A stretch of 64,000 nucleotides of DNA, from the NCBI GenBank assembly GCA_963575745.1, contig CAUYUJ010019102.1, positions 123,548-187,547 on the forward strand. Direction: 5' to 3'. Made by a program: the position numbers and the translations under genes. The notes below the pieces were generated by a model that saw only the letters and a list, made by a program, of their open reading frames with translations, was not told where the DNA came from and ran no database searches. Numbering within the stretch: the first letter of the stretch is position 1; each line of letters opens with the position of its first letter. Positions 17,060 through 59,048 of this stretch are shown here, one piece after another. This stretch comes from Prorocentrum cordatum. Taxonomy: Eukaryota; Sar; Dinophyceae; Prorocentrales; Prorocentraceae.

Positions 17060-17375
17060 TGTTCTAGCATGCCAGGTGGTGCAATCCATGTGGTGCAAGC
17101 CATGTGGTGCAAGCTGTGTGGTTGAAGCTAGGTGAGCACTCAACGTGGTGCAAGCTATATGGTGTAAGCTGTGTGGTGCACGTTTTGTGGTGGAATCTAT
17201 ATGGTGTGAGCCATGTGGTTCTAGGTAGGTGGTGCAATATATGTGGTAGGAGCTGACGCACTCATCTACGTTTTGTGAGTTGTGTGGTGTAAGCTGTGTG
17301 GTGGTTCGATCTATGGGGTGTGAGCTATGTGCTGTAATATAAGTGGTGCAATCTATGTGGTGCGATCTACCTTGC
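17060..17375. repeat. GTGGTGCAATCTAT-type 14-16 bp minisatellite
   Basis: Many imperfect copies of TGTGGTGCAAGCTATG and TGTGGTGCAATCTATG. The same family appears as linker before other macrosatellite units (25723-25755, 30060-30290, 31630-31740) and alone at 47120-47210. Confidence 0.85.
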
Positions 17376-17385
17376 CGGACTTGAA

Positions 17386-17947
17386 GTCGTCATCTCCACT
17401 GCTCGCGCAAACATCCCACCCACCCACCCGCAACTTGGTTTGCAAAACCTGTTAAGACCGACTACGACGACACCGACGACAACGACTAGGACGACACCGA
17501 CGACGTCTCCGACGACTTCGACGACGACAACGACGCCGACGACGACACCGACGAAGACGACGACCAACGAAGGCGACGACGAGGGAGGCGGAAGGACGAC
17601 GACGGCGACAACGACGACAACGACGACAACGACGAGGGAGGAGGGAGGACGGCGACGACGCGAACGACGACGAAGGAGGAAGGACGGCGACGCCGACGAC
17701 GACAACGACGAGGGAGGAGGGAAGACGACGACGACAACGACGACGACGACGGCGACGAAATAGGAGGGACGACGACGAGACGCCGACGACGGACGACGAC
17801 GACGACGAGGGAGGAGGAGGAAGGACGACCACGGCGACAACGACGACGGAAACGACCACGACGCCAAAGAGGACGACGACGACGAACACGAGGAAAGACA
17901 GAGGACGACGTAGGCGACGACGACGACGACGACGCGGGAGGAGGGAG

Positions 17948-17978
<31 letters not shown>

Positions 17979-18641
17979 CAAGAGCGCGCGCGCACGCTTT
18001 TGTTGAAAATCCGTGTTGCGAAACCTTGCGTTTTTGTAGGTTTTTTGGGCGCACGATTTTGAAATCCTTCCGAAACCGACGGGTTTTGAAGGTTTTCGGC
18101 ATACGCCCGCGACGACGCGCGCGTCTGCACTTCGTCTTCTTTTTTGCAGAGGATTCTCGCGACGGTACACGCGCAAGGGCGTTCGACAGATTTCGACATG
18201 AGCGCGCGCGAAGCCCGTTTGGTAACATTTTGTGAAAATTTTGAAAAACCTATGGTTTTCTTAAGATTTCGCAAGAGCTCGCGCGGAAGTTTTTTTAGCA
18301 ACTCTGTGTTGCGAAACCCGGTGTTTTTGTATGTTTTTTGGAAACTCGATTGTGAAATCCTTCCGGACCGAAGGTTTTTGAAGGATTTCGGCATGCGCGC
18401 GCGACGACGCGCGCGTGTGCACATCGTTTCATTTTTTGCAAGGGATTCGTGAACAAGTGTTCTGTTAAAACAAACATGTCACCGCACAGTGTTTTTACAA
18501 GGGAGCCTCAGGGGGGGGAAACCGGCCTAGCTGGGATGGTCTGATTTCATATTTAGGATGGACGCGTTTGCAGTATATATATATATATATAAAATCATAC
18601 GATCCCAGGGGGAACCGGTAAGTCCAGGGGGGGGTAGAGTC
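17386..18641. repeat. Macrosatellite unit 1 (interrupted at its 3' end by the retrotransposon)
   Basis: Order within the unit: conserved lead CCACTGCTCGCGCAAACATC (17396); (GAC)n-type tract, about 17455-17980; a first ~295-bp module from GTTGCGAAACC (18014) with the palindrome-like GCGCGACGACGCGCGCGT; a diverged second copy of that module from 18309; then ACCTCAGGGGGGGGAAACCG, an AT dinucleotide run and TAGAGTCTA. The unit stops at the TAT at 18642-18644, where the retrotransposon starts. Open frames in the GAC tract encode only Asp/Thr/Arg/Val runs. Confidence 0.9.
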
Positions 18642-18643
18642 TA

Positions 18644-18752
18644 TGTTAGTGCGTGCACGGGAATGATGAGAAAGGTTTTTCGGGTGTCGTGTCCAGGCTT
18701 GGCCCCCCGCGTTGCTCATCGCAACCGCTCGGGCTCAAGCGTCAAAAGGCAC
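18644..18752 (+). repeat. Split direct repeat A1
   Basis: 109 bp, from TGTTAGTGCGTGCACGGG to GCGTCAAAAGGCAC, identical to A2 at 25431-25539. Left boundary shares TAT with the flank (18642-18644). Confidence 0.95.
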
Positions 18753-18766
18753 GGGTTTGTCGCTCG

Positions 18767-19240
18767 ATGGCTGTCACGCCATCCCAGGTGGTACTCTTCG
18801 CCTGGATCGCCGTGATAGCCCCCTCGCTCTCCGGCTGGCTGGCCGGCTCCGCTGCTGGCCGCTCCGCGCCGGCAGTCCCAGGCCGCGCGGCGGCCGTCGA
18901 CTGGTGTTGGGAGCCCCCGCCGTGGGACTGCTCCTGCTCCTGCACCTGCCCGTCGTCGGCGGCGCCCGAGCCGCCGGTCCCGCCCCCGCTGGGGGCCTCG
19001 GTGCGGCTCGCGCCCGACGGAGCCGCGGCGATCGAGGTGGTCTGGCCGTGGCTGGGAGGCCTCGCGGTCTCGCCCGACCTCGCCCTCGCCGGCTGCCTGG
19101 GGTTCGGGATCTTCGAGGTCCTCTTCGTGCTGTATTGGTGCCGCCGTGCTGCACGGCCCGACCCGACGCAGCGCCGTGTGATCCACAATGGAGCAAGACT
19201 GGCTGCCGGGGACGCAGCTGCTCGTATCGTTCGTCACTGA
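18767..19240 (+). CDS. Small hydrophobic ORF at the 5' end of the DIRS-type element
   Basis: 157 codons from the ATG at 18767, just after A1. The peptide has a hydrophobic N-terminal segment (VVLFAWIAVIAP), a Cys/Pro-rich middle (DCSCSCTCPSSAAPEPPVPPP) and a second hydrophobic segment (LAGCLGFGIFEVLFVLYW) followed by a basic end. That suggests one or two membrane segments. The frame overlaps the gag-like ORF start (19188) by 53 bp. No known DIRS protein matches it in my memory. The GC-rich context means the frame could be open by chance, but its position and membrane character argue for a real product. Confidence 0.45.
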   Translation: MAVTPSQVVLFAWIAVIAPSLSGWLAGSAAGRSAPAVPGRAAAVDWCWEPPPWDCSCSCTCPSSAAPEPPVPPPLGASVRLAPDGAAAIEVVWPWLGGLAVSPDLALAGCLGFGIFEVLFVLYWCRRAARPDPTQRRVIHNGARLAAGDAAARIVRH

Positions 19241-20693
19241 TCCTGGGTTCAGGCACGAGCGCGTCATCGTGTGGCCGTGTCACGAGGGATCTTGGATCGT
19301 GTACACGGGCGGCGGCGACCTGTACGTGGAGGAGGAGAAGGACTGGGACAAGGTGTACCTCATGACGGCGGGTCAGCCGCCGAGGTCTCTGCCAGACGAC
19401 GGGGCCAAGATCGTGCAGTTTGCGAAGTTCCCGACGGACGACGAGCTGCGCGGGCTGATCGCGGAGGCCCGCGCCGAGGTGGCGCCCTTGCGGGAGTCTG
19501 AGCCCGATCGCCGCGTGCCGGCGGACCCGACCTACTTCTTGTCGGAGGATGGGCGGCAGCACCCGCTCCTTCGCCACCGCCTCCAGGGCAAGCAGGTGAG
19601 GCGCGCCGGCAAGGAAGGCAACCCACCTGTCGCCGATGCGGGCGCTGGGGCCGCCGAGTCCCTTGGCGGCGCCGGCGATGCGGGCGACGGCGTGCTGGCC
19701 GCCGACGGCGAGCGTCATCGCTGGCTAGTCAGCGAGCCTGGTCTGGTCTGGGAGTTGGGTACCCCTGTGCCGCACGCATGCGTCATGATCAGGCTGGGTG
19801 ACCGCGGCGTCGCCGACATCAACGGCGAGACGGTGCCAGTGCAGAGCGTTCCCGAGGCGGACGTGGGCGACTACGCGTCCATGAAGACCTCGGCCTACGA
19901 GGTGGCGATCCGCGACGCCGACGGCACGCCCACTGACTTCGGGCGGCGTGTCGGGATCGTGCCGAGCCACGCGCCTTCTCACGGCGAGGGGGCCAAGCCG
20001 ACCGCCCCTGTGGATGCCGCCGAGCCGAGCGATGTTCGCACCTTGTGGGTGGACACTGACGCCATGAACGTCCGGTTCAAGTCTTGGCGTAACGTGGTCA
20101 TGGAGAGCTACCCCACGGTGTGGACCGACAGCCCTGTGGAGGGGCCGTCTAGCCTAATGTAGATCCTCAGGCATTCTGATCGGCACGGTGGCAACATCAG
20201 GATGTGGCTCGACCCCTGGTCCCGCTCGAAGAACCTCGGGCCGGGCGAGCGGGTCATGCACGAGCTCTCCGTCCTCTGCGAGGTCATCTACGTGGGGGGC
20301 ACCTACGACCAGCTCAACATGCCGTCGCTGGTCAGCTTCGAGATCATAGCGCGCCGCATCCAGAGTATCGTGGACGCGTACTCGGGCGACCCCTCTCGAC
20401 CGCAGTGGGCCAACGCGAGGCTCTACTCCGGCGTGGGCTCTGCGGTGGACATGGTCGCGCCCGAGCTGAAGCACTACTTGGCCAAGAGGGCCAAGGACGA
20501 GGCCGAGGTCGAGTCCATGCGGGTCCGAGCCCGCAACCTTCCGATCGCTGCCGACGCCGTCGCCGCTGGCGGTCTTCCCGCCGCTGGACGCGGTGCACCT
20601 GTCGCCGCCGCGGCGGGCCAGCCCTCCAAAGGGCCGGGCCGTGGTGCCCCGAAGGGAGGCAAAGGCGCCGCTGCCGCGGCGGAGACTCAATGA
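19188..20693 (+). CDS. Gag-like ORF of the DIRS-type element, interrupted by in-frame TAG at 20160-20162
   Basis: The frame starts at ATG 19188 (MEQDWLPGTQLL), runs 324 codons to a TAG at 20160-20162, and continues in the same frame to a TGA at 20691-20693 (about 177 codons more). The first part is acidic with a W-rich N-terminus. The second part (RMWLDPWSRSKNLG, HELSVLCEVIYVGGTYDQLN, SFEIIARRIQSI) resembles a helical domain I recall from dinoflagellate retroelement ORFs, and it ends in a Lys/Gly/Ala tail that could bind nucleic acid. The domain seems to begin before the stop, since ILRHSDRHGG, directly after the TAG, looks like part of it. Either a nonsense mutation or a read-through stop. 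The 3' end overlaps the next start as ATGA. Confidence 0.75.
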
Positions 20694-23659
20694 GTGATAT
20701 GACCCTCGGCGGTGGGACTGGCCCAACCTCCGCCGTTCGCCTTCCTGGGCTTGCACGCGGATCCGCGGAGATCTTCCCGTTGCCCGACGACCCCAGCCTC
20801 GTCGCGGACTTCTGGATCCACCTTCAGGGGCGTGCCCAGCGCCGGTTCGTGAGGGACTGGCGGCAGTGTGTGCGTTCGCTAAATTGGTTGTGGGGTGCTG
20901 GACATCGTGAGGCCGCCCGTCGTGCTCAAGGTGACGTCCATCCATGCCGTTTTCGACTTCAACGGGAGGTGCTGGTGCGAATCGCCCAGGGGGTCCAGAT
21001 CTACTTGGACCCACCCTCCGACCTCTCTCCGAAGGAGGCCTTTCAGGGGCTACTTCGAGGCCGCGGGGTCTACGACACCGAGACGGCCTACACTACCCTG
21101 GCACCCTACCAACGGGGCGCGGTTTCTCTTCCCTGTGACGTCTCGACGGCCCCGGCTGTGGGAACCCTGGTCACGGGGCGCGCCCTCGAGTATCTGGTAG
21201 AGGCAGAGGAGCAGATGATCAGGGCCGATGCTGAGGTCCAGCTTGACCGTGAGACGAATGGCGAAATCAAGACCTACACCGACCCCCTGCTCGCCAATAG
21301 CCGCCGCCGGTACTCCACCTTCGTGAAGGACCTGAAGCGGAAAGGCTTGGTGGGCTTCACCCGCGATCCCAAGGAGTTCGTAGGTGTTTTCTTCGTGTGG
21401 AAGAAGGAGCGCGCCTCCATGAGAATGGTGCTCGACTGCCGCCGCTCTAATCAACGTTTCGTGACCCCTGCTGGGGTCGAGCTGCTGTCGACAGAGGGGC
21501 TTGGCCGGATCGAGTGCGACGCGGAGCAGACCGGCACGTTGCCCATCTTCCTGGGCAAAGCTGACGTGAAGGACTGCTTCCACCGCATGATGTTCGGCAA
21601 CCACCTCTCCAAGTACTTCTGCTACCCGGGCGGCCTCGCCAAGGAGTTTGGCATCGTCGGGCAGCTGGTGTCGGGGGTGCCCGCTCGCGCTGACGACTAC
21701 CTCTGGCCGTGCGCCCTCGCGCTGCCCATGGGCTGGACGTGGTCGCTCTACTTCGCTCAGGTGGCCAACCTCGGCCTGGTGGAACGGGTCCCCGCGGTCG
21801 CGTCGAGCTGCGTGGCTACCGATCGGGGGCCCCCTATCGTGCTGTCTCCGACCTCCTCCTGGCACTACGTTTACGTCGACAATGTGGGGCTCTTGTCGCT
21901 CGACGCCTCCTACGTCAAGGGGGCTCTGGCGGACACCATCGCGGCCTTCGACGCCGCGGGCCTCGTCATGCATGACATCTCGGTGGACTCCGACGCCGCC
22001 GAGGCGCTGGGAGTGACGCTCGATGGCCAGAAGCACCAGACCCTCGTCAACCACCGGCGCTACTGGAAGGTCAGACTGGGCCTCCGGTGGGTCCTCTCCT
22101 TGCGGCGCCTGGCAGGGCGGGAGCTCGAAGTTTTGCTTGGCCACTGTACATTCGTCGGCCTGATGTGCCGGGAGACCCTGTCCGTGTGGCACACCGTCTA
22201 CACCTTCATCCGCGAGCGGTACTGGGCCAAGAGCGACGTGTGGGACTCCGCACGTCAGGAGCTCGAGTGCTTCCTCGGGCTGATGCCGCTCCTTCGCTCC
22301 GAGTGGGATCGGCCGTGGCTCGCGCAGGTACTGTCCGTGGACGCCAGCCCGTACGGCTGGGGGATTGCCAGCTCCGAGTTCGGAGTGTCGACGGTGAAAA
22401 AGCAGGGCAGGATCCTCGAACGATCTCGTTTCCGTCGTCTCGGAGGGTTGCCGGCTCGGGCCAGTGCCCTCGCTGCCGCGGGGTTCGTCTACTCGCCCAG
22501 GCAGGTCGACGACGAGAAAGAGCGTGACCCCTCGGACGTTCGGGAGGCTGGAGCCTGGGAGATGCGTAAGGACTTCCCTGAGATTCCTGGGGCCCTCCTC
22601 CACGGGGATCGGTGGCGCTTGATTTTGCATGGCAAGTGGGCCTACTCCGAGGATATCCTGATTCTTGAGGCCCGCGTCCTGGTCAAAGCTGTCGCAAGAG
22701 TTTGTAATTGTGTTCCAGGTGGATTCTGCAGAGTATTGTTATTTGGAGATAATATGTCAGTTATATTAGCTTGTGAAAGATTTCGGGCCCGCAGCTTCGG
22801 GCTCTTGGTGCAGATCAGACGAATCGCGGCCTACGCTCTGGCCCGAGGGGTTCGATTTGGGTTCAGGTGGCATCCCTCAGAGCTCAACAGTAGCGACGCT
22901 GGGTCCCGTATCTACGACCCCAACTACGACTCCACGAAGGATCTCACTCGCCTAGTGGCTGACGGACACGGACCCGGAGACGTCCTGCCTCAGCCTGCGG
23001 ATCCACCTCGATCCGACGACGTGCCGGCTCAAGTTCCCGAATCGCTCGAGACCCCTGATCCTTTCGCCTGCACCGTATTCCACGACTGCCATGAAGCGGA
23101 CCCGCACCCTGGAGGCGCCGAGCCACACCATCGCTGGCCAGAAGAGCCGGCGCACGACGAGCAGTGCGCGTCCGACGGCGACTTCCTGTCCGCCTTCAGC
23201 GACCCCGGGGCCATCGAGGACGCGTACCCTCCCGCGACCGGAGATACGCTCGAAGCTGGACGCTGGGAAGGTGCCCCCGGCCAAAGGGTCCCTGGAGACG
23301 CTGGCGGTCAAGGGGCCCGCGTGGGCTACAGCAGCAGTCACGGCCGCTGCCACCGCCGCGGCCGCCGACGTGGACAGCGATGGCACTACTACGGCCGACG
23401 AGATGGAGAGGGGACCCGACGGCAGGTCATCTCAGCAGCGGGTCCGAACCCTGCGTGCCGACCGGCGCGCGCGCAGGTACCTGCAACTAGCCGAGACCCT
23501 GCCGCCGCAGTCGTCGGTGCTGGAGGAGATGGCCGTCTCGGTGCGCACGCAGCGCCAGTACGTCATGGAGCTGCAGGGGTTCGTGGACTTTGCCTACCTG
23601 CGGCAGCTGCGCACCACCACGTCCGCGCTCACCGACGCCGCCCTGGTGGAGTACATTAA
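20690..23659 (+). CDS. Reverse transcriptase - RNase H polyprotein (DIRS-type Pol)
   Basis: The start chosen is the ATG at 20690, which overlaps the gag stop as ATGA and opens 989 codons; the frame is open further upstream but there it shadows gag. An N-terminal region of about 200 residues is followed by the RT: motif A ADVKDCFHRM (Asp about 292), motif B ALPMGWTWSLYFAQ, and motif C YVDN (Asp 397, Asn 398) instead of the usual YxDD. RNase H follows: LSVDASPYGWG (Asp 551), Glu 660 in ILEARVLVK, Asp 687 in LLFGDNMS and the closing NSSDAGSR. After about residue 750 the frame is a Pro/Asp-rich tail that overlaps the recombinase frame. The protein would copy the element RNA and remove RNA from the hybrid. 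Confidence 0.9.
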   Translation: MSDMTLGGGTGPTSAVRLPGLARGSAEIFPLPDDPSLVADFWIHLQGRAQRRFVRDWRQCVRSLNWLWGAGHREAARRAQGDVHPCRFRLQREVLVRIAQGVQIYLDPPSDLSPKEAFQGLLRGRGVYDTETAYTTLAPYQRGAVSLPCDVSTAPAVGTLVTGRALEYLVEAEEQMIRADAEVQLDRETNGEIKTYTDPLLANSRRRYSTFVKDLKRKGLVGFTRDPKEFVGVFFVWKKERASMRMVLDCRRSNQRFVTPAGVELLSTEGLGRIECDAEQTGTLPIFLGKADVKDCFHRMMFGNHLSKYFCYPGGLAKEFGIVGQLVSGVPARADDYLWPCALALPMGWTWSLYFAQVANLGLVERVPAVASSCVATDRGPPIVLSPTSSWHYVYVDNVGLLSLDASYVKGALADTIAAFDAAGLVMHDISVDSDAAEALGVTLDGQKHQTLVNHRRYWKVRLGLRWVLSLRRLAGRELEVLLGHCTFVGLMCRETLSVWHTVYTFIRERYWAKSDVWDSARQELECFLGLMPLLRSEWDRPWLAQVLSVDASPYGWGIASSEFGVSTVKKQGRILERSRFRRLGGLPARASALAAAGFVYSPRQVDDEKERDPSDVREAGAWEMRKDFPEIPGALLHGDRWRLILHGKWAYSEDILILEARVLVKAVARVCNCVPGGFCRVLLFGDNMSVILACERFRARSFGLLVQIRRIAAYALARGVRFGFRWHPSELNSSDAGSRIYDPNYDSTKDLTRLVADGHGPGDVLPQPADPPRSDDVPAQVPESLETPDPFACTVFHDCHEADPHPGGAEPHHRWPEEPAHDEQCASDGDFLSAFSDPGAIEDAYPPATGDTLEAGRWEGAPGQRVPGDAGGQGARVGYSSSHGRCHRRGRRRGQRWHYYGRRDGEGTRRQVISAAGPNPACRPARAQVPATSRDPAAAVVGAGGDGRLGAHAAPVRHGAAGVRGLCLPAAAAHHHVRAHRRRPGGVH

Positions 23660-24656
23660 CCACATGTTCTTCCGTGGCGAGCAGGCGTTCAGTGGCGAGA
23701 AGCTCCTCGCCGCGGTGATGGCCCGCTCACCCGAGTTCTCGAGAGTTGGTCTCAGCAAGATGCCGAGGGCCTGGCGTTGCCTGAAGGGATGGAGGCGCCT
23801 GACTCCAGGGCGCTCCCGCAAGCCCGCTCCCCTGCCGGTCTGGTGTGCCATCGCGGTGGAGTTCGCGAGGCGGGGCATGCTGGCCATGGGGCTCGCCGTG
23901 ATGATCGGAGTCAGCTGCTACCTCAGGCCCTCGGAGCTCCTCAACCTTACCTCGGACAACCTGGTGGCCCCGGCATCGCCTGTGTCGCAGTACTGGAGCC
24001 TCCTTTTGCATCCTTCGGAGGGGGAGAAGAGGAGCAAGACCGGGGATGCGGACGACTCGCTGATCATCGACTCGGCCTACATGCTGCCGTGGGTGCACGA
24101 CTTCCTCCAGGCCTTGAAGGAGAAGGGCGGCCGGCTGTGGTCCTTCGACTATCTCACCTTCTTGGCGGAGTTCAAGACTGTGGCCAAGATGCTGGGCATG
24201 CCGCACCTTGTGCCCTACCAGATGAGACACTCGGGGCCGTCGATAGATCGCCTCAAGCCGGATCGCAGCCAGGAGGAGTGTCAGAAGCGCGGAAGGTGGA
24301 AGAGCTGGAAAAGCCTCGTGCGCTACGAGAAGAGCGCCCGCCTCGGAAGCTTCTGGAACGAGCTCCCTGCCGAGATGCAAGCGCACATGCGCCTGTGCGA
24401 GGACCAGCTCGTCGAGTTCCTCTGGTCGCCCGAGCGTGCCCCAAGGCCACCGCCCGTCCGCGGCTGGCCAAAGATGGCACCTACATGGCCGACCTGTTCT
24501 CCGGCTCGGGCAAGGTTGCTCGGGCAGTCATGCGGCTGGGGTTCTCAGCCAAGGCTTGGGACATCATCCACGGGCCCAACCATGACATCACCGACCCGGC
24601 TGTGCTTCGGCTACTGCTCTCGGACATCCGTGACGGCAAGATCTTCGCCGCCATGA
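23091..24656 (+). CDS. Tyrosine recombinase (integrase of the DIRS-type element)
   Basis: 521 codons, in a different frame from Pol and overlapping it by up to 569 bp; true translation may begin later than the ATG at 23091, because the first ~90 residues are low complexity. A SAM-like helical N-domain (RTQRQYVMELQGFVDFAY) precedes the catalytic domain: Arg 279 in SCYLRPSELLNL, Arg 379-His 380 in YQMRHSGPSIDR, and Tyr 412 in LVRYEKSARL after KRGRWKSWKS. These match the R...RH...Y set of phage-type recombinases found in DIRS elements. It would insert a circular cDNA without making a target duplication, which fits the flanks. The last ~57 codons overlap the methyltransferase. Confidence 0.92.
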   Translation: MKRTRTLEAPSHTIAGQKSRRTTSSARPTATSCPPSATPGPSRTRTLPRPEIRSKLDAGKVPPAKGSLETLAVKGPAWATAAVTAAATAAAADVDSDGTTTADEMERGPDGRSSQQRVRTLRADRRARRYLQLAETLPPQSSVLEEMAVSVRTQRQYVMELQGFVDFAYLRQLRTTTSALTDAALVEYINHMFFRGEQAFSGEKLLAAVMARSPEFSRVGLSKMPRAWRCLKGWRRLTPGRSRKPAPLPVWCAIAVEFARRGMLAMGLAVMIGVSCYLRPSELLNLTSDNLVAPASPVSQYWSLLLHPSEGEKRSKTGDADDSLIIDSAYMLPWVHDFLQALKEKGGRLWSFDYLTFLAEFKTVAKMLGMPHLVPYQMRHSGPSIDRLKPDRSQEECQKRGRWKSWKSLVRYEKSARLGSFWNELPAEMQAHMRLCEDQLVEFLWSPERAPRPPPVRGWPKMAPTWPTCSPARARLLGQSCGWGSQPRLGTSSTGPTMTSPTRLCFGYCSRTSVTARSSPP

Positions 24657-25237
24657 TTGCCCTCCCTTGCACCTCGCTGACTATCGCTCGAGATAGGACC
24701 TTTCAGATACGTTCACGCACTCAACCATGGGGGACTGACCTTACTGATGCTACCGATCGTGACCGGGCCTCGCTCGAGACTGGTAACAAGATAATTCGGG
24801 CCGTACTTCGCATTCTTAGACATCTCAATCGCTACAAGATTCCGTGGATACTTGAGAATCCGTCAACTTCCCGCCTGTGGTTCATTCCAGAGATACTTGC
24901 TCTGTGCAGTCAGGCGCGTGCTGAATGGCGACTTGCAGATTTCTGTCAATGGGGGACGCCGTGGCGAAAAAGGACATGGCTGGTTTGCGGCAACATGGAC
25001 CCTGAGGACACTTGCTCGCTGGACAGAGTCTGCACTGGAAAAGCAGGTGTGTGCTCTCGCACTCTCCGCCGTCTTATCGAGCTGAGTGGCCGCAATGACC
25101 AGAATGTTCTGTGGTCCTCAATTGCCCAGCCTTACCCCTCTCGCCTGGCCACTGCTCTGGGTAAGTCTCTCGCTGCTAAGAAGCACGCCTCCTGCTCGTA
25201 CAACTCGGGCGGCCCCGTCCGTACCGGGGCCCAATGA
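24485..25237 (+). CDS. C5-like DNA methyltransferase domain protein of the DIRS-type element
   Basis: 250 codons from ATG 24485, in the +1-shifted frame relative to the recombinase, with a 172-bp overlap. It opens directly on an AdoMet-binding motif (ADLFSGSGKVARAV, residues 2-15). An acidic second strand (AWDI..GPNHDITD) follows, then ALPCTSLT with Cys 62 where C5 enzymes carry the PC catalytic motif, and WILENPSTSRLW with Glu 124 where they carry ENV. No DPPY/NPPY of N6-adenine methylases is seen. It is short and lacks a clear target-recognition domain, so sequence specificity cannot be read. DIRS elements often carry a methyltransferase, usually described as Dam-like; this one looks cytosine-type. 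GC content falls through its second half. Confidence 0.8.
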   Translation: MADLFSGSGKVARAVMRLGFSAKAWDIIHGPNHDITDPAVLRLLLSDIRDGKIFAAMIALPCTSLTIARDRTFQIRSRTQPWGTDLTDATDRDRASLETGNKIIRAVLRILRHLNRYKIPWILENPSTSRLWFIPEILALCSQARAEWRLADFCQWGTPWRKRTWLVCGNMDPEDTCSLDRVCTGKAGVCSRTLRRLIELSGRNDQNVLWSSIAQPYPSRLATALGKSLAAKKHASCSYNSGGPVRTGAQ

Positions 25238-25322
25238 GGCTCTTGCCTTGGGTGCTTTCGCTTTTCCCCTCCTCTCTTCCCCTCCTTCGCCCCTGTGAAC
25301 CCTTTTCAATTCGGGATGTTTG

Positions 25323-25431
25323 GAATGCCTTGGACGTGTGATTCTAACGATCTCACGTCGTCCCAGCTGTGTGTTGTAACCCTGTCAGATAGTAGCAGAT
25401 CTTCTCCGCTGGAAAAACACGGTCTCATTAT
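25323..25431 (+). repeat. Split direct repeat B1
   Basis: 109 bp, GAATGCCTTGGACGTG to CACGGTCTCATTAT. One mismatch to B2 (GTGATTCTAAC versus GTGATGCTAAC). Directly abuts A2, as the B2-A1 junction of a circle would. Confidence 0.95.
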
Positions 25432-25539
25432 GTTAGTGCGTGCACGGGAATGATGAGAAAGGTTTTTCGGGTGTCGTGTCCAGGCTTGGCCCCCCGCGTT
25501 GCTCATCGCAACCGCTCGGGCTCAAGCGTCAAAAGGCAC
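25431..25539 (+). repeat. Split direct repeat A2
   Basis: 109 bp identical to A1. Followed by a 52-bp spacer (25540-25591) before B2. Confidence 0.95.
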
Positions 25540-25591
25540 CCGCCCTTTCGAACAATGTTCTCCCATCCCTTACTTCATTCAATGCTTTGCA

Positions 25592-25700
25592 GAATGCCTT
25601 GGACGTGTGATGCTAACGATCTCACGTCGTCCCAGCTGTGTGTTGTAACCCTGTCAGATAGTAGCAGATCTTCTCCGCTGGAAAAACACGGTCTCATTAT
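25592..25700 (+). repeat. Split direct repeat B2 (right end of the element)
   Basis: 109 bp copy of B1. Ends in CATTAT at 25700, and the macrosatellite resumes with TCTCTTTTTAGAAGGGAG. Confidence 0.95.
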
Positions 25701-28207
25701 TCTCTTTTTAGAAGGGAGAACCTATGTGGTGTAAGCAATGTGGTGTAATCAATTTCTGATCGCAGTGCGTTGTCCACTCCACTGCTCGCGCAAACATCCC
25801 ACCCACCCACCCGAAATTTGGTTTGCAAAATTTCTTAAGACCGTGACGGTGGGTACCACATGGCACTTGGCAACAACAGCGACGCCGACGACGACAGCGA
25901 CAACGACGATGACGACGCCGCCGAAAACGACTACGACGACACCGACGACGTCTCCAACGACTTCGACGACGCCGTCAACGACGACGACGACGACACCGAC
26001 GACGACGACGACGACACCGTTGCCGACGACGACGACGATGACAACGATGACGACGATGACGACGCCGACGACGACGATAACGACGACATCGACGACGACG
26101 ACGTCAACGACGCCGACGACGACGACGACGACGGCGGCGACGACGACGACGCCGACGTCGACGACGACGAAGACGACAACGACGCCGACGCCGACGACGA
26201 CGACGAAAACGACGACGACGTCGCCAACGAAGACAACGAGGAAGGAGGGAGGACGACGACGGCGACAACGACGACAACGACGAGGGAGGAGGGAGGACGG
26301 CGACGACGCGAACGACGAAGAAGGAGGAAGGACGGCGACGCCGACGACGGCAACGACGAGGGAGGAGGGAAGACGACGACGACAACGACGACGACGACGG
26401 CGACGAAATAGGAGGGACGACGACGAGACGCCGACGACGGACGACGCCGACGACGAGGGAGGAGGAGGAAGGACGACCACGGCGACAACGACGACGGAAA
26501 CGACCACGACGCCAAAGAGGACGACGACGACGAACACGAGGAAAGACAGAAGACGACGTAGGCGACGACGACGACGATAACGACGCGGGAGGAGGAAGAC
26601 GACGACGTCGACGAGGACGACGCAAGAGCGCGCGCGCACGCTTTTGCTGAAAATCCGTTTTGCGAAACCTTGTGTTTTTGTAGGTTTCTTGGACACACGA
26701 TTTTGAAGTCCTTCCGAAACCGATGGGTTTTTAAGGTTTTCGGCATACGCGCGCGACGACGCGCGCGTCTGCACTTCGTCTCGTTTTTTGCAGAGGATTC
26801 TCGCGACGGCACACGCGCAAGGGCGTTCGACAGCTTTCGACATGAGCGCGCGCGAAGCCCGTTTGGTAGCATTTTGTGAAAATCTTGAAAAACCCATGGT
26901 TTTCTTAAGATTTCGCAAGAGCTTTCGCGGAAGTTTTTTTAGCAACTCTGTGTTGGGAAACCCTGTGTTTTTGGATTTTTTTTTGAAACTCGATTGCGAA
27001 ATCCTGCCCGCACCGAAGGTTTTTGAAGGATTTCGGCATGCGCGCGCGACGACGCGCGCGTGTGCACTTCGTTTCATTGTTTGCAAGGGAGTCGCGAAAA
27101 AAATGTTATGGTAGAACAAAAAATGTCACCGCATAGTGTCTTTTACAAGGGAACCTCAGGGGGGGGAAACCGGCCTAGCTGGGATGGTATGGTTTCATAT
27201 TTCGGATGGACGAGTGTGCAGAATACATAGTATATATATATGAAACCATATTATCACAGGGGGAACCGATAAGTCCGGGGGGTGGGGGGTAGAGTCTATT
27301 TTTTTTGGAAAGGAGAATCAATCACTTGCTCAACTTGAAGCTGTCCTCTCCACTGCTCGCGCAAACATCCCACCCTCCCACCCGCAACTTGATTTGCAAA
27401 ACCTCTTAAAACCGACTACGACGACACCGGCGACAACGATTAGGACGACACCGACGACGTCTCCGACGACTTCGACGACGACAACGACGCCGACGCAGAC
27501 GACGACGAAGACGACGATGACGACGCCAACGAAGGCGACGACGAGGGAGGAGGAAGGACGACGACGGCGACAACGACGACAACGACAACAACGACGAGGG
27601 AGGAGGGAGGACGCCGACGACGCGAACGACGACGAAGGAGGAAGGACGGCGACGCCGACGACGACAACGACGAGGGAGGAGGGATGACGACGACGACAAC
27701 GACGACGACGACGGTGACGAAATAGTGACGACGACGGTGACGAAATAGAGCCGACGACGAGACGCCGACGACGGACGTCGACGACGACGTGGGAGGAGGA
27801 GGACGGACGACCACGGCGACAACGACGGCGGAAACGACCACGACGCCAAAGAGGACGACGACGACGAACATGAGTTTAGACAGAGGACGACGTAGGCGAC
27901 GACGACGACGACGACGCGGGAGGAGGGAGGACGGCGACGACGACGACGACGACGCAAGAGCGCGCGAGCACGCTTTTGTTGAAAATCCGTGTTGCGAAAC
28001 CTTAGGTTTTTGTACGTTTTTTGGACGCACGATTTTGAAATCCTTCCGAAACCGATGGGTTTTGAAGGTTTTCGGCGTACGCCCGCGACGGCGTGCGCGT
28101 CTGCACTTCGTTTCGTTTTTTGCACAGGATTTTCCCGACGGCACACGCGCAAGGGCGTTCGACAGATTTCGACATGCGCGCGCGCGAAGCCCGTTTGGCA
28201 GCATTTT

Positions 28208-28263
<56 letters not shown>

Positions 28264-31200
28264 AAAAACGCAAGAGCTCGCGCGGAAGCTTTTTTAGCAA
28301 ATCAGTGTTGCGAAGCCCTGTGTTTTTGTATGTTTTTTTTGGAAACTCGATTGCGAAATCCTTCCGGCACCGAAGGTTTTTGAAGGATTTCGGCATGCGC
28401 GCGCGACGGCGCGCGCGTGTGCACATCGTTTCATTTTTTGCAAGGGATTCGCGAACAAGTGTGATGTTAGAACAACAAATGTAACCGCATAGTTTTTTTT
28501 GCAAAACAACAAAGGGAACCTCAGGGGGGGAAACCGGTTTGGCTGGGATGATATTTGTCATATTTCGGATGGACGAGTGGTCATAATCAGATATGATTTA
28601 CATACCCGAAAGGGGAACGGATAAGTCCGGGGGGGGGGGGGTAGAGTCTAATTAGAAAAGGAGAATCTAAATTGCGTCGTATGTACAGTGCAATTCACTT
28701 TGACCGTCTTGAAGCTGTCCTCTCCACTGCTCGTGCAAACATCCCACCCTCCCACCCGCAACTTGGTCGCAAGACCTCGTAAGACAAGACCGTGACGGTA
28801 GGTACCACATGGCACTTGGCCACGACACCGACGCCGACGACAGCGACAGCGATGACGAGACACCGACTACGACGACACCGACGACGTCTTCAACGACTTC
28901 GACGACGACAACGACGACGACAACGACGACACCGACGACGACGACGACGACGACGACGAGGGAGGAGGGAGGACGACGACGGCGACAACGACGACAACGA
29001 CGACAACGACGAGGGAGGAGGGAGGACGGCGACGACGCGAACGACGAAGAAGGAGGAAGGACGGCGATGCCGACGACGACGACGAGGGAGGAGGGGAGAC
29101 GATGACGACAACAACGACGACGACGACGACGACGGCGACGAAATAGGAGTGACGACGACGAGGCGCCGACGACGGACGATGACGACGACGAGGGATGAGG
29201 AGGAAGGACGACCACGGCGATAACGACGACGGAAACGACCACGACGCCAAAGAGGACGACGACGACGAACACGAGGAAAGACAGAGGACGACGTAGGCGA
29301 CGACGACGACGACGCGGCAGGAGGGAGGACGGCGACGACGACGACGACGACGACGCCGACGACGCAAGAGCGCGCGCGCACGCTTTTGTTGAAAATCCGT
29401 GTTGCGAAACCTGGTGTTTTTGTTTGGTTTTTTGGGCACTATTTTGAAATCCTTACGAAGCCGATGGGTTTTGAAGGATTTCGGCATACGCGCGCGACGA
29501 CGCGCGCGTCTGCACTTCGTTAAATTTTTTACAGAGGACTCGCGACGGCACGCGCGCAAGGTCGTTCGACAGATTTCGACATGCGCGCGCGCGAAGTCCG
29601 TTTGGTAGCATTTGGTGAAAATTGTGAAAAGCCTATGGCTTTGTCTTAAGATTTCGCAAGAGCTCGCGCGTCAGTTTATTTAGCAAATCAGTGTTGCGAA
29701 ACCCTTTGTTTTTGCATGTTTTTTTGTTTTGGAAATTCGATTGCGAAATCTTTCCGGCACCGACGGTTTTTGAGGGATTTCGGCATGCGCGCGCGACGAC
29801 GCGCGCGTGTGCACTTCGTCTCGTTTTTTGCAAGGGATCCGGGCAAAAGCTTTATGTTAGAACAAAACTTGTTCCCGCGTATGGTTTTTCACAAGGGAAC
29901 CTCAGGGGTAGCGACCCCGGCCCCCCTGGGATAGTGTAAAATCATATTTAGGATGGACATGTGGTCAGAATCATATGTGATCTACATACCCGAAAGGGGG
30001 ATTGATGACGCCGGGGGGGGGGGGGTAGAGTAGATTTTTTTGGTGTTTAGAAAAAAGAATATACGGTGCGAGCTACAGTGGTGCAACCTATGCAGTGCAA
30101 TCTGGGTCGTGTAATTTACCTTGAGCAGATAATTTGGTGTAAGATATTACGTGGTGCGAGCAGTTTTGTGCAATCGTGCAACTCATGTGGCGCAATCTGT
30201 GTGGTGTGGGCTCCGTGACATAAGGCATGTGTTGCAATCACTGTGGTACAATGTATATGGTGTAAGCTTTGTGCTGCAATTAATATTTGGCCGTCTTGAA
30301 GCTGTCCTCTCCACTGCTCGTGCAAACATCCCACGCTCCCACCCGCAACTTGGTCGCAAGACCTCTTGAGACAAGACCGTGACGGTGGGTACCACATGGC
30401 ACTTGGCCACGACACCGACGCCGACGACGACAGCGACAACGACGACGACGGCGCCGCCGACACCGATTACGACGACGTCTCCAACGACTTCGACGACGAC
30501 AACGACGACGACGACACCGACGATGACCACGCCGACGACGACGACGGCGACGAGGGAGGAGGGAGGACGACGACGGCGACAACGACGACAATGACGACAA
30601 CGAAGAGGGAGGAGGGAGGACGGCGACGACGCGAACGACGAAGAAGGAGGAAGAACGGCGACGCCGACGACGACAACGACGAGGGAGGAGGGAAGACGAC
30701 GACGACGGCAACGACGACGACGACGGTGACGAAATAGGAGGGACGACGACGAGACGCCGACGACGGACGACGACGACGACGACGACGACTAGGGAGGAGG
30801 AGGAAGGACGACCACGGCGACAACGACGACGGAAACGACCACGACGCCAAAGAGGACGACGACGACGAACACGAGGAAAGACAGAGGACGACGTAGGCGA
30901 CGACGACGACGACGCGGGAGGAGGGAGGACGGCGACGACGACGACGACGCCGACGACGCAAGAGCGCGCGCGCGCCGCTTTTGTTGAAAATCCGGGTTTT
31001 TGTAGGTTTTTTGGACACGCGATTTCGAAATCCTTACGAAACCGATGGGTTTTGAAGGATTTCGGCATACGCGCGCGACGACGCGCGCGTCTGCACTTCG
31101 TTAATGTTTTTCCAGAGGACTCTCGCGACGGCACACGCGCAAGGGCGTTGGACAGATTTCGACATGCGCGCGCGCGAAGTCCGTTTGGTAGCATTTTGTG

Positions 31201-31625
31201 AAAATTGTGAAAAACCTATGGTTTTTCTTAAGATTTCGCAAGAGCTCGCGCGTCAGTTTTTTAAGCAAATCAGTGTTGCGAAACCCTTTGTTTTTGTATG
31301 TTTTTTTTGGAAGCTCGATTGTGAAATCTTTCCGGCACCGAAGGTTTTTGAGGGATTTCGGCATGCGCGCGCGACGACGCGCGCGTGTGCACTTCGTCGA
31401 TTTTTTTTGCAAGGGATTCGCGAAAAAGTGTTATGTTAGAACAAACAATGTCACCGCATAGTGTTTTTTACAAGGGAACCTCAGAGGGGGGGATGCCGGC
31501 CGGCCTGGGATAGTGTAAATCATATTTAGGATGGACATGTGGTCATAATCATATGTGATTTACATACCCGAAAGGGGGATTGATGACGCCGGGGGTGGGG
31601 GGGGGAAAACCTTGTTTTTAGAAAG
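25701..31625. repeat. Macrosatellite units 2-5
   Basis: Four more units with the order described for unit 1: unit 2 about 25701-27302, unit 3 27303-28655, unit 4 28656-30038, unit 5 30039-31625. The lead CCACTGCTCG recurs at 25779, 27350, 28724 and 30311, with spacings of 1571, 1374 and 1587 bp; unit 1 minus the retrotransposon gives about 1326. Units 2, 4 and 5 have GGTACCACATGGCACTTGGC ahead of the GAC tract; units 1 and 3 lack it. Each unit has two related ~295-bp modules and ends at an ACCTCAG(G)n / G-run / TAGAGTCTA block. Long open frames are GAC-tract shadows. Confidence 0.9.
28204..28268. repeat. Perfect T9-(TA)n-A palindrome inside macrosatellite unit 3
   Basis: Nine T, then a TA dinucleotide run, then ten A form a near-perfect palindrome. 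It replaces the ~40 bp (GTGAAAATTTTGAAAAACC and following) that other units have here. Confidence 0.9.
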
Positions 31626-39685: not shown

Positions 39686-39956
39686 TCCCCACCAGCCATT
39701 TTGGCTGCGACTGGCTCGCCCTGAGGGCTGTCCTCTCAGACTCCCTGGGTCGCAGCTTGCACGACCTCTCAGGTTGCTGACCTTTCAGACTCCCTGGGAT
39801 TGCACGTCCGCCTGGCCTCTCAGACGCCCTGGGTTGCTGCCCCCCCCCGCCGCCTGATCCGCGGCCCCCGCGCGCGCCCGGGAATTTAGTCGCGGCCGCA
39901 GCCCGACCGTGACTGCTCGCCGCCGGCGCTTCCGCCTGCGGCTGTAAAAAAGAATA
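39686..39956. other. Segment with a third TIR-like start, next to the MITE-like copy
   Basis: Begins TATCCCCACCAGCCATTTTGGC, so it shares the family terminus, but its interior (CTCTCAGACTCCCTGGG repeated three times at about 39740, 39785 and 39815) differs. It may be a partial or hybrid copy. The 16-mer AATTCTAGACGCTTCG just left of it (39666) recurs inverted beyond the far copy (about 41713). Confidence 0.5.
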
Positions 39957-40481
39957 TCCCCACCAGCCCGTCCAGAAACGACGCCCAGGCGAGTAGAGGG
40001 TCGTCCTGAGGGGCTTTTCGGCGTCTTGGGTGTCTCGGGGGGGCCTCTGTGGGCGGTTCGGGATCCTCTTTGGGGCCTCCTGGGGGCCTCTTGGGGCCTC
40101 TTGGGGCCATCTTGGGGCCTTTGGGGGCCTCCTGGGCGCTTCTTGGGGCCTCCTGGGCGCTTCTTGGGGCCTCTTGGGGGTCTCTTGGGGGCCTCCTGGG
40201 GGCCTCTTGGGGGGCCTCGGAGCCATCTTGGAGGAGATCGATCAACGAAGGGGGGGTCCCTAATTCCAGTCCCCCCCTCAGGAGCCACGATCCTCGTGAG
40301 GGGTGTCGAATTTTAGCCCTCCCAGGGGTCGTTCTTGGACGCTCTAACTACCCGCGGCCCTCCCTGTCCAGGTCAGTGGGGAGGGGGTAGGGGGAGGGGT
40401 AAACCCCTCCCCGAAGGGGAAGAAGGAGGGGTGGAAGAGGAAACTCGTTAAACCACCGACGCCCAGAGGGCTGGTGGGATT
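39957..40481 (+). mobile_element. MITE-like element, copy A
   Basis: About 525 bp with terminal inverted repeats ATCCCCACCAGCCC / GGGCTGGTGGGAT. The interior is CTTGGGGCCTC-type minisatellite plus an AAGGGGAAGAAGGAGGGG segment. Nearly identical, in reverse orientation, to 41155-41692. It interrupts the LINE RT. It has no coding capacity, so it would need a transposase in trans. Confidence 0.7.
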
Positions 40482-41154
40482 TGAATAGATCCCAAAGAGG
40501 CGTAACAGCAGCGTCTCCAGAAGATTTCGCACTCTCCGCTCTGAAGGCCTGGCGCCAAACCACGTCGGATGCCGATGCGAAGCTGCTGCCCGCCAAGTAG
40601 TCTCTCTCAAAAGGGGCGTTCCACTTGGATGCGAAGCCCCTGCGGCAGCGCCCCCAGAGGCGGTGGCAGGATACAAAGATGCCTATCGGTCGGAACCCGC
40701 CCGCTGGTTTGGCCTGCATGGCCGTCGCAATCACTTGCAGTTGCTTCGGCACTCGACCTGACCAAGCTGAGCACCTCGAGGCATTGGTCGCTCAGCGAAG
40801 CGTAGTGACGCATGTGCAAACCATATTCTGAGGTCGCTGTGTGCTCCGCGTAGGTTTGGCTGGTACACCGAAGCTCCTCGGCCGACAAAGTCGTAGAGGC
40901 TCCAGCGGCTGGAAAGTGCCTGGCAACTGCGGCGCGTCCGAGCAAGCCTGCCAGGAACTTGAAAAACGAGCGGCCTCGGACTCGGAGTGAGAGAGGGTCT
41001 GCCAATGCGTTCCCATCCCTCGACAGTGTAGTTGTTGGCCTCCATGGTTCCGTACCCCTTATGACATCATGAGCTTTCCGTCCCCTCTTATCGATCTTAT
41101 CGAGGATGAAGCGTCTCCAGTCCTGAGCCGAGCGGATCCTATCAGCAGCAATAA
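40482..41154 (-). pseudogene. LINE reverse transcriptase, N-terminal half
   Basis: The minus strand reads SLSDQCLEVLSLVR, then after a frame change near 40752 PKQLQVIATAMQAKPAGGFRPIGIF, the usual RT motif 1-2 region, and then SCHRLWGRCRRGFASKW. Flanked by MITE-like copies on both sides. The two frames prove at least one indel here. Confidence 0.7.
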
Positions 41155-41692
41155 TCCCACCAGCCCTCCGGGCGTCGGTGGTTTAACGAGTTTCCTCTTC
41201 CACCCCTCCTTCTTCCCCTTCGGGGAGGGGTTTACCCCTCCCCCTACCCCCTCCCCACTGACCTGGACAGGGGGGGCCGCGGGTAGTTAGAGCGTCCAAG
41301 AACGACCCCTGGGAGGGCTAAAATTCGACACCCCTCACGAGGATCGTGGCTCCTGAGGGGGGGACTGGAATTAGGGACCCCCCTTTCGTTGATCGATCTC
41401 CTCCAAGATGGCTCCGAGGCCCCCCAGGAGGCCCCCAAGAGACCCCCAAGAGGCCCCAAGAGACCCCCCAGAGGCACCCAAGAAGCGCCCAGGAGGCCCC
41501 AAGAAGCGCCCAGGAGGCCCCCAAAGGCCCCAAGATGGCCCCAAGAGGCCCCAAGAGGCCCCCAGGAGGCCCCAAAGAGGATCCCGAACGGCCCACAGAG
41601 GCCCCCCCGAGGCACCCAAGACGCCGAAAAACCCCTCAGGACGACCCTCTACTCGCCTGGGCGTCGTTTCTGGACGGGCTGGTGGGGATACG
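41155..41692 (-). mobile_element. MITE-like element, copy B (opposite orientation to copy A)
   Basis: Begins ATCCCACCAGCCCTCC (41155) and ends GGGCTGGTGGGGAT (41692). Close to the reverse complement of copy A throughout, differing by a few substitutions and an 18-bp-scale change in repeat number. It separates the LINE linker from the RT. Confidence 0.7.
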
Positions 41693-52469: not shown

Positions 52470-52620
<151 letters not shown>

Positions 52621-53198
52621 TGTGGTTCGGTTTCGGTCTTCCTCCGGTCCTCTCCCTCTCCCTGGTTTGGTCTTCCTCCGGTCCTCTCTCTGGTCTGGCC
52701 TCCCTCCGGTCCTCTCCCTGGGTTTGGTGGTGGTTGGTATGCGCTTGATGCTGCTCGCGCGCGCGCTGAGGCAAACTTGTGTCAGCTTGTGTCGCTTGCA
52801 GTCGTGGCGTGCAGCCTCGCACACTTTAAGTTTTGTCCCTGGGCCGGCAAGCAGAATAATACATAGACAGCACGTGTGTGATTCCAGTGGTGCTCTCTGG
52901 GTTCGTGGGGGCCGGAGTCGCACAAATGACACAACTCTGAAGCCTGTATTTTCAATACTTCTGGGGAGCTACATGCTGTAACATAGTTATGTGAGTAATC
53001 TATGTCTCTGATTGTAGCTGTGGTGGCTCAGCCTGGTTTAGGCCACAGGCGCTCAAACCGTCGAGTACGGTGCATACTGCAGTAGGTCAGGTCGGGCCTC
53101 ACCGAACGGGGATGTTGCGACAGTGAAAACAGTCTCTTGGTCGATCCTTGGTTCTGGGTCTCACTTACTCGGATATCTCTCTCATCACTTTACGTGTG
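52621..53198 (+). repeat. Left pseudo-LTR of the Penelope-like element
   Basis: 578 bp, TGTGGTTCGGTTTCGG to CATCACTTTACGTGTG, constant offset of 5850 to the right copy with no indel. It includes a triple CCTCCGGTCCTCTC motif near its start and may hold the promoter. Confidence 0.95.
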
Positions 53199-53327
53199 GT
53201 CAAGTCCTCTGGAGCGGGTCCAAACCCTGGCCTGGTGTACCACTGACTTTGCCTTCGTCCATACATATATACTCATATTCACGTTCCTCCATATTACGTT
53301 CTACATTTTGGTATTAATTCAAACACG

Positions 53328-58355: not shown

Positions 58356-58470
58356 TCCGCGCCGGTCCCAACCCAGCCCGAGGCAAGTGTAGAACGTGAT
58401 GAAGGCCCTCAGGGCATGAGACATCTTATCTCCCTCGCGGTCTTTTCTGGGTGGGCTGTGTGCGTGTGTG

Positions 58471-59048
58471 TGTGGTTCGGTTTCGGTCTTCCTCCGGTCC
58501 TCTCCCTCTCCCTGGTTTGGTCTTCCTCCGGTCCTCTCTCTGGTCTGGCCTCCCTCCGGTCCTCTCCCTGGGTTTGGTGGTGGTTGGTATGCGCTTGATG
58601 CTGCTCGCGCGCGCGCTGAGGCAAACTTGTGTCAGCTTGTGTCGCTTGCAGTCGTGGCGTGCAGCCTCGCACACTTTAAGTTTTGTCCCTGGGCCGGCAA
58701 GCAGAATAATACATAGACAGCACGTGTGTGATTCCAGTGGTGCTCTCTGGGTTCGTGGGGGCCGGAGTCGCACAAATGACACAACTCTGAAGCCTGTATT
58801 TTCAATACTTCTGGGGAGCTACATGCTGTAACATAGTTATGTGAGTAATCTATGTCTCTGATTGTAGCTGTGGTGGCTCAGCCTGGTTTAGGCCACAGGC
58901 GCTCAAACCGTCGAGTACGGTGCATACTGCAGTAGGTCAGGTCGGGCCTCACCGAACGGGGATGTTGCGACAGTGAAAACAGTCTCTTGGTCGATCCTTG
59001 GTTCTGGGTCTCACTTACTCGGATATCTCTCTCATCACTTTACGTGTG
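58471..59048 (+). repeat. Right pseudo-LTR of the Penelope-like element
   Basis: Same sequence as 52621-53198, preceded by GTGTGTGTG as on the left. Diverges after TACGTGTG, where the left copy goes into the element and the right copy into a GT run. Confidence 0.95.

What the first reader, a model, noticed from the sequence alone, without database searches (positions are those of the whole stretch)
18642..25700. Complete split-direct-repeat tyrosine-recombinase retrotransposon carrying a methyltransferase
All four repeats (A1, B1, A2, B2) are exactly 109 bp, in the order A1-genes-B1-A2-B2, around RT-RNase H, tyrosine recombinase and a methyltransferase. The layout matches known PAT/Ngaro-type elements, but equal-length A and B repeats, the YVDN catalytic box, an extra 5' hydrophobic ORF and the C5-like methyltransferase together look like an undescribed lineage. 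A1/A2 identity and one mismatch in B1/B2 argue for recent movement.
Basis: partly seen in the sequence, partly recalled or inferred. Interest (0 to 1): 0.9.

Follow-up and report, generated by a model that had tools for sequence, protein, structure and literature searches.

The report
Algal jumping gene with nested recombinase
This is a real jumping gene from a bloom-forming alga whose integration enzyme gene is hidden inside another gene in a second reading frame, and one of its lineages appears to have kept only its copying enzyme and a DNA-methylating enzyme in working order, which hints that the methylating enzyme is needed for the copying itself.

Summary
In detail: A1-genes-B1-A2-B2 with 109-bp repeats around reverse transcriptase-RNase H (RT-RH), tyrosine recombinase (YR) and a C5-fold methyltransferase (MT). 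The same repeats bound other copies in the host assembly (4.13 Gb, inferred to be Prorocentrum cordatum). Insertions show no target duplication, and a sister array unit shows the empty site.

It is a DIRS-order, split-direct-repeat element. RT-RH and MT form one Pol frame, and YR lies wholly inside it in +1. Of 73 relatives with RT and MT, 57 could be tested and all 57 carry YR that way. SymbioDIRS-Dnmt3 (2018) already reports A-coding-B-A-B dinoflagellate elements with a C5 MT; in the searches and passages I saw, the nested YR is not described.

Main new result: 16 copies share a 393-bp in-frame YR deletion. Among them gag and YR evolve about neutrally (median dN/dS 0.9-1.8), while RT-RH and MT stay under purifying selection (0.14-0.19). 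This suggests Pol, MT included, acts in cis, with Gag and YR supplied in trans. One cluster of four young copies is uninformative.

The window copy is probably dead. MT activity is untested and no CpG-depletion footprint was seen.

The parts
18644..18752 (+). A1 split direct repeat (109 bp)
   Evidence: identical to 25431-25539; 5' edge from 20 copies
18642..18644 (+). 5' crossover triplet TAT; the last T is constant in 20 of 20 copies with a 5' end, the first two bases vary
18767..19240 (+). ORF1, small hydrophobic protein
   Evidence: 63% identity to the start of P. cordatum P0015; third-position bias among full copies, chi2 p=0.0085
19188..20693 (+). gag-like ORF, in-frame TAG at 20160 found in this copy only (1 of 20 covering it)
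   Evidence: median dN/dS 0.20 among full copies
20690..25237 (+). Pol reading frame: RT-RH, linker over YR, MT; one stop (23657) in this copy, not shared by the other 7 full copies
   Evidence: one open frame in 57 relatives
20690..22949 (+). reverse transcriptase (YVDN box at Pol residue 395) and RNase H
   Evidence: family HMM E=6e-287 (the HMM was built with the window included); relatives hit PF00078
23091..24467 (+). tyrosine recombinase, +1 frame, wholly inside Pol; frame open from 22956; usual stop 24465, lost here so the frame runs to 24656
   Evidence: best PDB matches Cre
23429..23821 (+). 393-bp stretch absent from the D copies (YR residues about 114-243), in frame for both readings
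24485..25237 (+). C5-fold methyltransferase, Pol frame
25323..25431 (+). B1 repeat (109 bp)
25431..25539 (+). A2 repeat (109 bp)
25592..25700 (+). B2 repeat (109 bp), one mismatch to B1; ends in triplet TAT
17328..18641 (+). host tandem-array unit (about 1.3 kb) at whose edge the element sits, left flank
25701..27302 (+). host array right of the element; another unit edge, near 27289-27300, reads GTAGAGTC-TAT-T, the empty form

Best explanation
A DIRS-order YR retrotransposon. Its RNA is translated into Gag, into one Pol polyprotein (RT-RH-linker-MT) and, from the +1 frame inside Pol, into YR. RT makes cDNA that is closed into a circle through the B1-A2 block. YR recombines the circle junction (CATTATGTTAG) with a short matching site, leaving no target duplication. 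MT is a C5-type methyltransferase used by the element on its own cDNA or circle. A derived lineage (D) has lost YR, and at least most of it Gag, and is moved with those proteins supplied in trans, but must encode its own RT-RH and MT. Shown here: anatomy, insertion outcome, nested frame and its conservation, the selection pattern. Inferred: circular intermediate, trans supply, cis action of Pol, the target of MT and its chemistry.
For: Repeats and genes. Copies bounded by the same repeats with different flanks; junction CATTATGTTAG in 14 of 15 readable; of 16 copies with two true ends, direct repeats beyond the triplet are 0 bp (9), 1 bp (6), 2 bp (1). Empty site in a sister array unit. Nested YR: 57 of 57 tested relatives, 0 of 57 in the other frame; window alone 1 stop against 7.8 expected, P=0.001; YR stop at 24465, before the MT start, in 7 of 8 full and 10 of 12 D copies. 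Selection among D copies: gag 0.96, YR 1.03, RT-RH 0.17, MT 0.14. Differences shared by two or more D copies, N:S, gag 313:104, YR 108:27, RT-RH 36:109, MT 21:55, neutral ratio about 2.4-3.0. Four further D copies agree. Within the largest cluster alone (7 copies) gag 1.00, YR 1.70, RT-RH 0.25, MT 0.19. MT C62 and E124 kept in 10 of 10 covered D copies while several YR catalytic positions decay. MT fold. YR fold.
Against: No expression, translation or enzyme data. Pairwise values are not independent. Cluster C3 (L020, L021, L033, L034) is uninformative: gag 0.91, RT-RH 0.66, MT 0.73, YR 0.89, and gag is frameshifted in only 1 of its 4 copies (9 of 12 D copies overall). No CpG-methylation footprint: CpG observed/expected 0.98 (full) and 1.00 (D); singleton C>T/G>A at 83 of 1337 CpG sites against 161 of 2905 other C/G sites. 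The window copy lacks the MT histidine kept in 72 of 76 sequences. 3 of 12 D copies carry a stop in RT-RH or MT (L022, L025, L026) and 3 a frameshift there (L021, L034, L032); full copies have such lesions too. How YR is translated is unknown.
Confidence: 0.7

Rival explanations
1. It is simply another SymbioDIRS-Dnmt3 element (de Mendoza 2018), the MT being a captured eukaryotic Dnmt3.
For: Same host group, same A-coding-B-A-B order, C5 MT in Pol with RT, YR in a separate ORF. Foldseek's lowest PDB E-values are DNMT3 chains (about 1e-4, TM 0.41-0.44).
Against: That paper found its DNMTs with PF00145 and places them in the Dnmt3 clade; here the window MT gives no Pfam hit at E<=1 and 5 of 37 sequences give a weak one, best 0.0061. 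Profile matches are to small phage methyltransferases, and the best viral-library fold match is lower in E (6.8e-8, unnamed). VIA-align ties HhaI, DNMT1 and DNMT3. No nested YR in the parts of the paper read.
Confidence: 0.25
2. The D pattern is not cis-action: RT-RH and MT of D copies look conserved because gene conversion from full copies keeps refreshing them, or because RT/MT serve the host.
For: Full and D copies coexist in one genome; conversion is common among repeats (general knowledge).
Against: D copies differ from full copies by many synonymous-position majority changes in RT-RH (92 at third positions) and MT (64), so they are not simply overwritten. Singletons are closer to neutral than shared changes, as expected for copies that decay after insertion. 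Conversion tracts were not mapped.
Confidence: 0.15
3. The open Pol frame over YR is a by-product of GC-rich coding and has no function; MT is translated on its own from its ATG.
For: GC is 64%; out-of-frame openness is common in GC-rich genes; MT has an ATG at 24485; 4 of 8 full copies carry one stop in this stretch.
Against: Synonymous shuffling keeps codon content and still expects 7.8 stops where 1 is seen (P=0.001), while RT controls show no deficit (gag controls P 0.04-0.06). 57 relatives spread over the RT tree have RT-linker-MT as one frame.
Confidence: 0.15

Closest known systems
SymbioDIRS-Dnmt3 (Symbiodinium; PMC5890265, abstract, sections 6 and 7 and passages read)
   Same: dinoflagellate DIRS-order element, A-coding-B-A-B repeats, C5-type MT in Pol with RT, YR in its own ORF, purifying selection on MT
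   Different: their MT is assigned to Dnmt3 by PF00145 and a tree; here the sequence matches are to phage MT profiles; no nested YR and no gag/YR-less lineage in the parts read
PAT-like elements (passages in PMC3266345 and PMC6681497)
   Same: split direct repeats A1..B1-A2-B2, YR, RT-RH; sister to DIRS1-like, which carry MT
   Different: YR wholly inside Pol in +1 and upstream of MT; C5-fold MT; RT position in a reference tree untested
DIRS1-like elements (passages in PMC3266345)
   Same: Gag, YR, Pol = RT-RH-MT; long Pol/YR overlap in half of 28 elements there
   Different: inverted terminal repeats and ICRs instead of split direct repeats; catalytic YR domain outside the overlap; Dam-type MT (PMC5890265); YL/IDD box in 25 of 28
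Ngaro / VIPER (passages in PMC3266345, PMC6681497)
   Same: split direct repeats
   Different: no MT and usually no ORF overlap (PMC3266345)
BARE-2-type elements (recalled, no call)
   Same: Gag supplied in trans to an element keeping its own Pol
   Different: LTR elements with DDE integrase and no MT

Membership tests
DIRS order (YR retrotransposons) | RT-RH plus tyrosine recombinase in one element | tested here: met
   family HMMs; YR model best matches Cre, E 2e-4, TM 0.35/0.46; R279, R379, W403, Y412 in 8, 8, 8, 7 of 8 full copies
DIRS order (YR retrotransposons) | integration without target duplication at a short shared core | tested here: met
   16 of 16 copies with two true ends; empty site
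PAT-like | split direct repeats A1-B1-A2-B2 | tested here: met
PAT-like | RT/RH clade with PAT reference elements | not testable with these tools
   no Repbase sequences at hand
DIRS1-like | inverted terminal repeats with internal complementary regions | tested here: not met
   direct repeats at the ends; none of the 4 inverted pairs of 30 bp or more lies there
[quoted passage not shown]
   YR ends at 24467 inside Pol (20690-25237) in most copies
Ngaro/VIPER | no MT domain | tested here: not met
   MT 24485-25237
SymbioDIRS-Dnmt3 | MT belongs to the Dnmt3 clade | tested here: inconclusive
   fold tied among HhaI, DNMT1, DNMT3; weak PF00145; phage profiles; no Dnmt3 sequence compared
C5 cytosine methyltransferases | class I fold with PC (motif IV) and EN (motif VI) | tested here: met
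   C62 72 of 76, E124 72 of 76, N125 71 of 76; model matches. Motif names recalled
C5 cytosine methyltransferases | methylates cytosine C5 | not tested
   needs enzyme assay

The most novel reading that the evidence does not exclude
The methyltransferase is a core, cis-acting replication function of these elements: a lineage that gave up selection on Gag and recombinase still keeps MT under the same constraint as RT. A phage-type C5 methyltransferase, fused to RT and wrapped around a fully nested recombinase gene, marks or protects the element's own cDNA or circle before integration.
Probability: 0.45. Interest if true: 0.82.

Novelty: new variant of a known kind. Interest (0 to 1): 0.7.

Why it matters
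The role of the methyltransferase in DIRS-type elements has been called unknown (passages in PMC3266345 and PMC6681497). Here a natural experiment separates the parts: copies that no longer maintain YR, and mostly not gag, still maintain RT-RH and MT. That makes the question testable and suggests MT acts in the element's own copying. A whole recombinase dual-coded inside Pol, kept in relatives from dinoflagellates and unnamed or metagenome assemblies, is also an unusually long overlap of two enzymes' frames.

Tried and rejected
DNA of relatives: viral contigs gave none with the RT protein and none confirmed with alignment A1; genome contigs gave one contaminant contig with RT only. So the nested frame in relatives was tested on proteins by asking which +1-frame residues their codons allow. 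Left out of the 57: 13 proteins in which RT, YR and MT all match in one predicted protein (several look like intron-joined gene models; not resolved; P0152 has a different order) and 3 with under 300 residues between RT and MT (P0044, P0062, P0147). One protein, P0025 (235-residue stretch after RT, no MT), showed no excess (501 against 500); the two RT controls showed none.

Idea dropped: weak Pol-frame constraint on the linker of D copies. The same position order appears in gag of D copies and follows base composition by codon position, so it is not evidence.

Idea dropped: a methylation footprint; none seen. A PDB search by MT profile found only weak C5 matches. The MT profile scored phage Bobby114, which has the ENV motif, as high as the best ENP-type phage proteins, and missed 3 of 10 (BKO1-3, BU241P2, E. 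coli Dcm) at E<=10. So 'phage-type' rests on phrog_757/2882, shared motifs and a profile comparison (E 1e-15) that had no canonical C5 control. tblastn of the window MT on phages gave only two matches, E 0.6 and 3.

Rows set aside: L030 (3' truncated) from the F/D groups; L042 (partial) from the replication; L029 and L034 lack MT; L023 lacks the 5' half (its listed 5' end is internal) and L033 has a truncated B2, so both were dropped from the two-ended count (18 to 16). L025 and L028 have one A and one B only.

Full report
CHECK. The repeats and order are as described. The maximal A match is 111 bp and identical, B is 109 bp with one mismatch, in the order A1-genes-B1-A2-B2. Copy comparison sets the A edge at TGTTAG, so A is 109 bp too. 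Neither repeat has another match in the window at E<=1e-3.

HOST. The window lies in G000, 4,128,499,153 bases in 21,875 contigs; P. cordatum is given as about 4.15 Gbp (PMC10449503, abstract in a listing). The closest named proteins are P. cordatum (RT 88%; MT 85% over 39% of the query). The contig of one copy (L030, 294,067 bases) has the length listed for a P. cordatum protein's contig (P0150). I take the host to be P. cordatum; this is inference.

GENES. ORF1 18767-19240; gag 19188-20693; Pol from 20690, overlapping the gag stop; YR from 23091 (frame open from 22956); MT 24485-25237. Pfam gives nothing but one chance-level hit (E 0.24) for the window's proteins. Three searches of 5.8 billion proteins gave 152 proteins (candidate lists capped in the last two). 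Those with names are mostly P. cordatum and Symbiodiniaceae; most have no name. The RT box is YVDN in 115 of 143 RT-bearing proteins; 19 had no match to my pattern and 9 had other boxes.

NESTED RECOMBINASE. RT-RH and MT are in the same frame and YR is +1 to it. Of 73 proteins with RT and MT, 57 have a 378-553-residue linker and no YR in that frame (the other 16 are told under Tried and rejected). Asking which residues their codons could encode one base on, 57 of 57 fit the YR profile far above shuffles (excess 287-603, shuffle sd at most 34), and 0 of 57 did so in the +2 frame. In the window the Pol frame has 1 stop over 464 YR codons where synonymous shuffling expects 7.8 (P=0.001); RT controls show no deficit, gag controls P 0.04-0.06. 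In 7 of 8 full and 10 of 12 D copies YR stops at 24465, before MT begins; the window copy lost that stop. The nested form occurs in both large branches of the RT tree and near the RT-MT-RH group, but not in the branch of P0056-P0060, where no MT was seen (68 tips, support not examined). A few distant relatives place MT between RT and RNase H (P0062, P0147, P0152).

RECOMBINASE. The model (pLDDT 79) matches Cre best (E 2e-4, TM 0.35/0.46). R279, R379, W403 and Y412 are kept in 8, 8, 8 and 7 of 8 full copies. The window has Tyr (PYQMRH) where YRs usually have His of HxxR (motif recalled).

INTEGRATION. The last T of the 5' triplet is constant in 20 of 20 copies with a 5' end; the 3' triplet is TAT in 14 of 17. 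Among 16 copies with two true ends, direct repeats beyond the triplet are 0 bp (9), 1 bp (6) or 2 bp (1). The element sits in an array of about 1.3-kb units; the edge of another unit reads GTAGAGTC-TAT-T, the unoccupied form. This is the outcome expected of YR joining of a circle. The circle itself was not seen.

TWO LINEAGES. 20 further copies were fetched. With the window, 8 are full (F), 12 share an exact 393-bp deletion (D), 1 was set aside. Median dN/dS: F gag 0.20, RT-RH 0.18, YR 0.16, MT 0.10, ORF1 0.37; D gag 0.96, ORF1 0.96, YR 1.03, RT-RH 0.17, MT 0.14. Codon-position tests agree: third-position excess in D is 2.29 for RT (p 1e-14) and 3.17 for MT (p 1e-11), but 0.81 for gag and 0.76 for YR. 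Changes shared by at least two D copies are N:S 36:109 (RT-RH), 21:55 (MT), 313:104 (gag), 108:27 (YR), neutral expectation about 2.4-3.0. Frameshifts against the window inside gag: 9 of 12 D copies; in ORF1: 12 of 12, in 4 of them only near its end. Seven more copies were then fetched: 2 F, 4 D, 1 partial. The new D copies give gag 0.89-0.92, YR 1.15-1.77, RT-RH 0.16-0.19, MT 0.18-0.19; new F comparisons give gag 0.39, RT-RH 0.42, YR 0.12, MT 0.14. By cluster: the largest (7 copies) gag 1.00, YR 1.70, RT-RH 0.25, MT 0.19; between the two larger clusters 0.99, 0.93, 0.16, 0.14; within C3 (4 close copies) 0.91, 0.89, 0.66, 0.73, that is, mostly decay after insertion and no information on which genes were kept. 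At least 40 places in the assembly match the 3' block, 31 at 94% or more.

READING. D copies kept moving after losing YR and, at least in most, Gag; those were presumably supplied by others, while RT-RH and MT had to be their own. MT therefore behaves as part of the copying machine. Against a simple CpG self-methylation story, neither lineage is CpG-poor; the 2018 paper likewise found no significant CpG difference for SymbioDIRS-Dnmt elements.

LITERATURE. Nine searches led to A-coding-B-A-B C5 MT elements in Symbiodinium (PMC5890265). I saw no nested YR and no gag/YR-less lineage in the listings and in the passages read of six papers. 'Prorocentrum' with 'DIRS' gave 0 papers. Subscription papers, supplements and Repbase were not seen.

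Noticed in passing
52607-53198 and 58457-59048: 592-bp direct repeats with one mismatch flank a 1549-aa frame (53247-57893) with no Pfam hit at E<=0.01; perhaps another retroelement.
   Followed up: partly
17328-31603: Array of about 1.3-kb units rich in GAC-type trinucleotide stretches, the landing site of the element.
   Followed up: partly
L031 and L032: Two D copies share the same 5' flank (25 bases seen) but have different 3' flanks, perhaps from recombination or duplication.
   Followed up: no
L025 and L028: D copies with a single A and a single B repeat, as if B1-A2 had been lost.
   Followed up: no
P0062, P0147, P0152: Relatives with MT between RT and RNase H, a second domain order.
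   Followed up: partly
39955-40481 and 41153-41690: Inverted repeats of about 538 bp, 96% identical.
   Followed up: no
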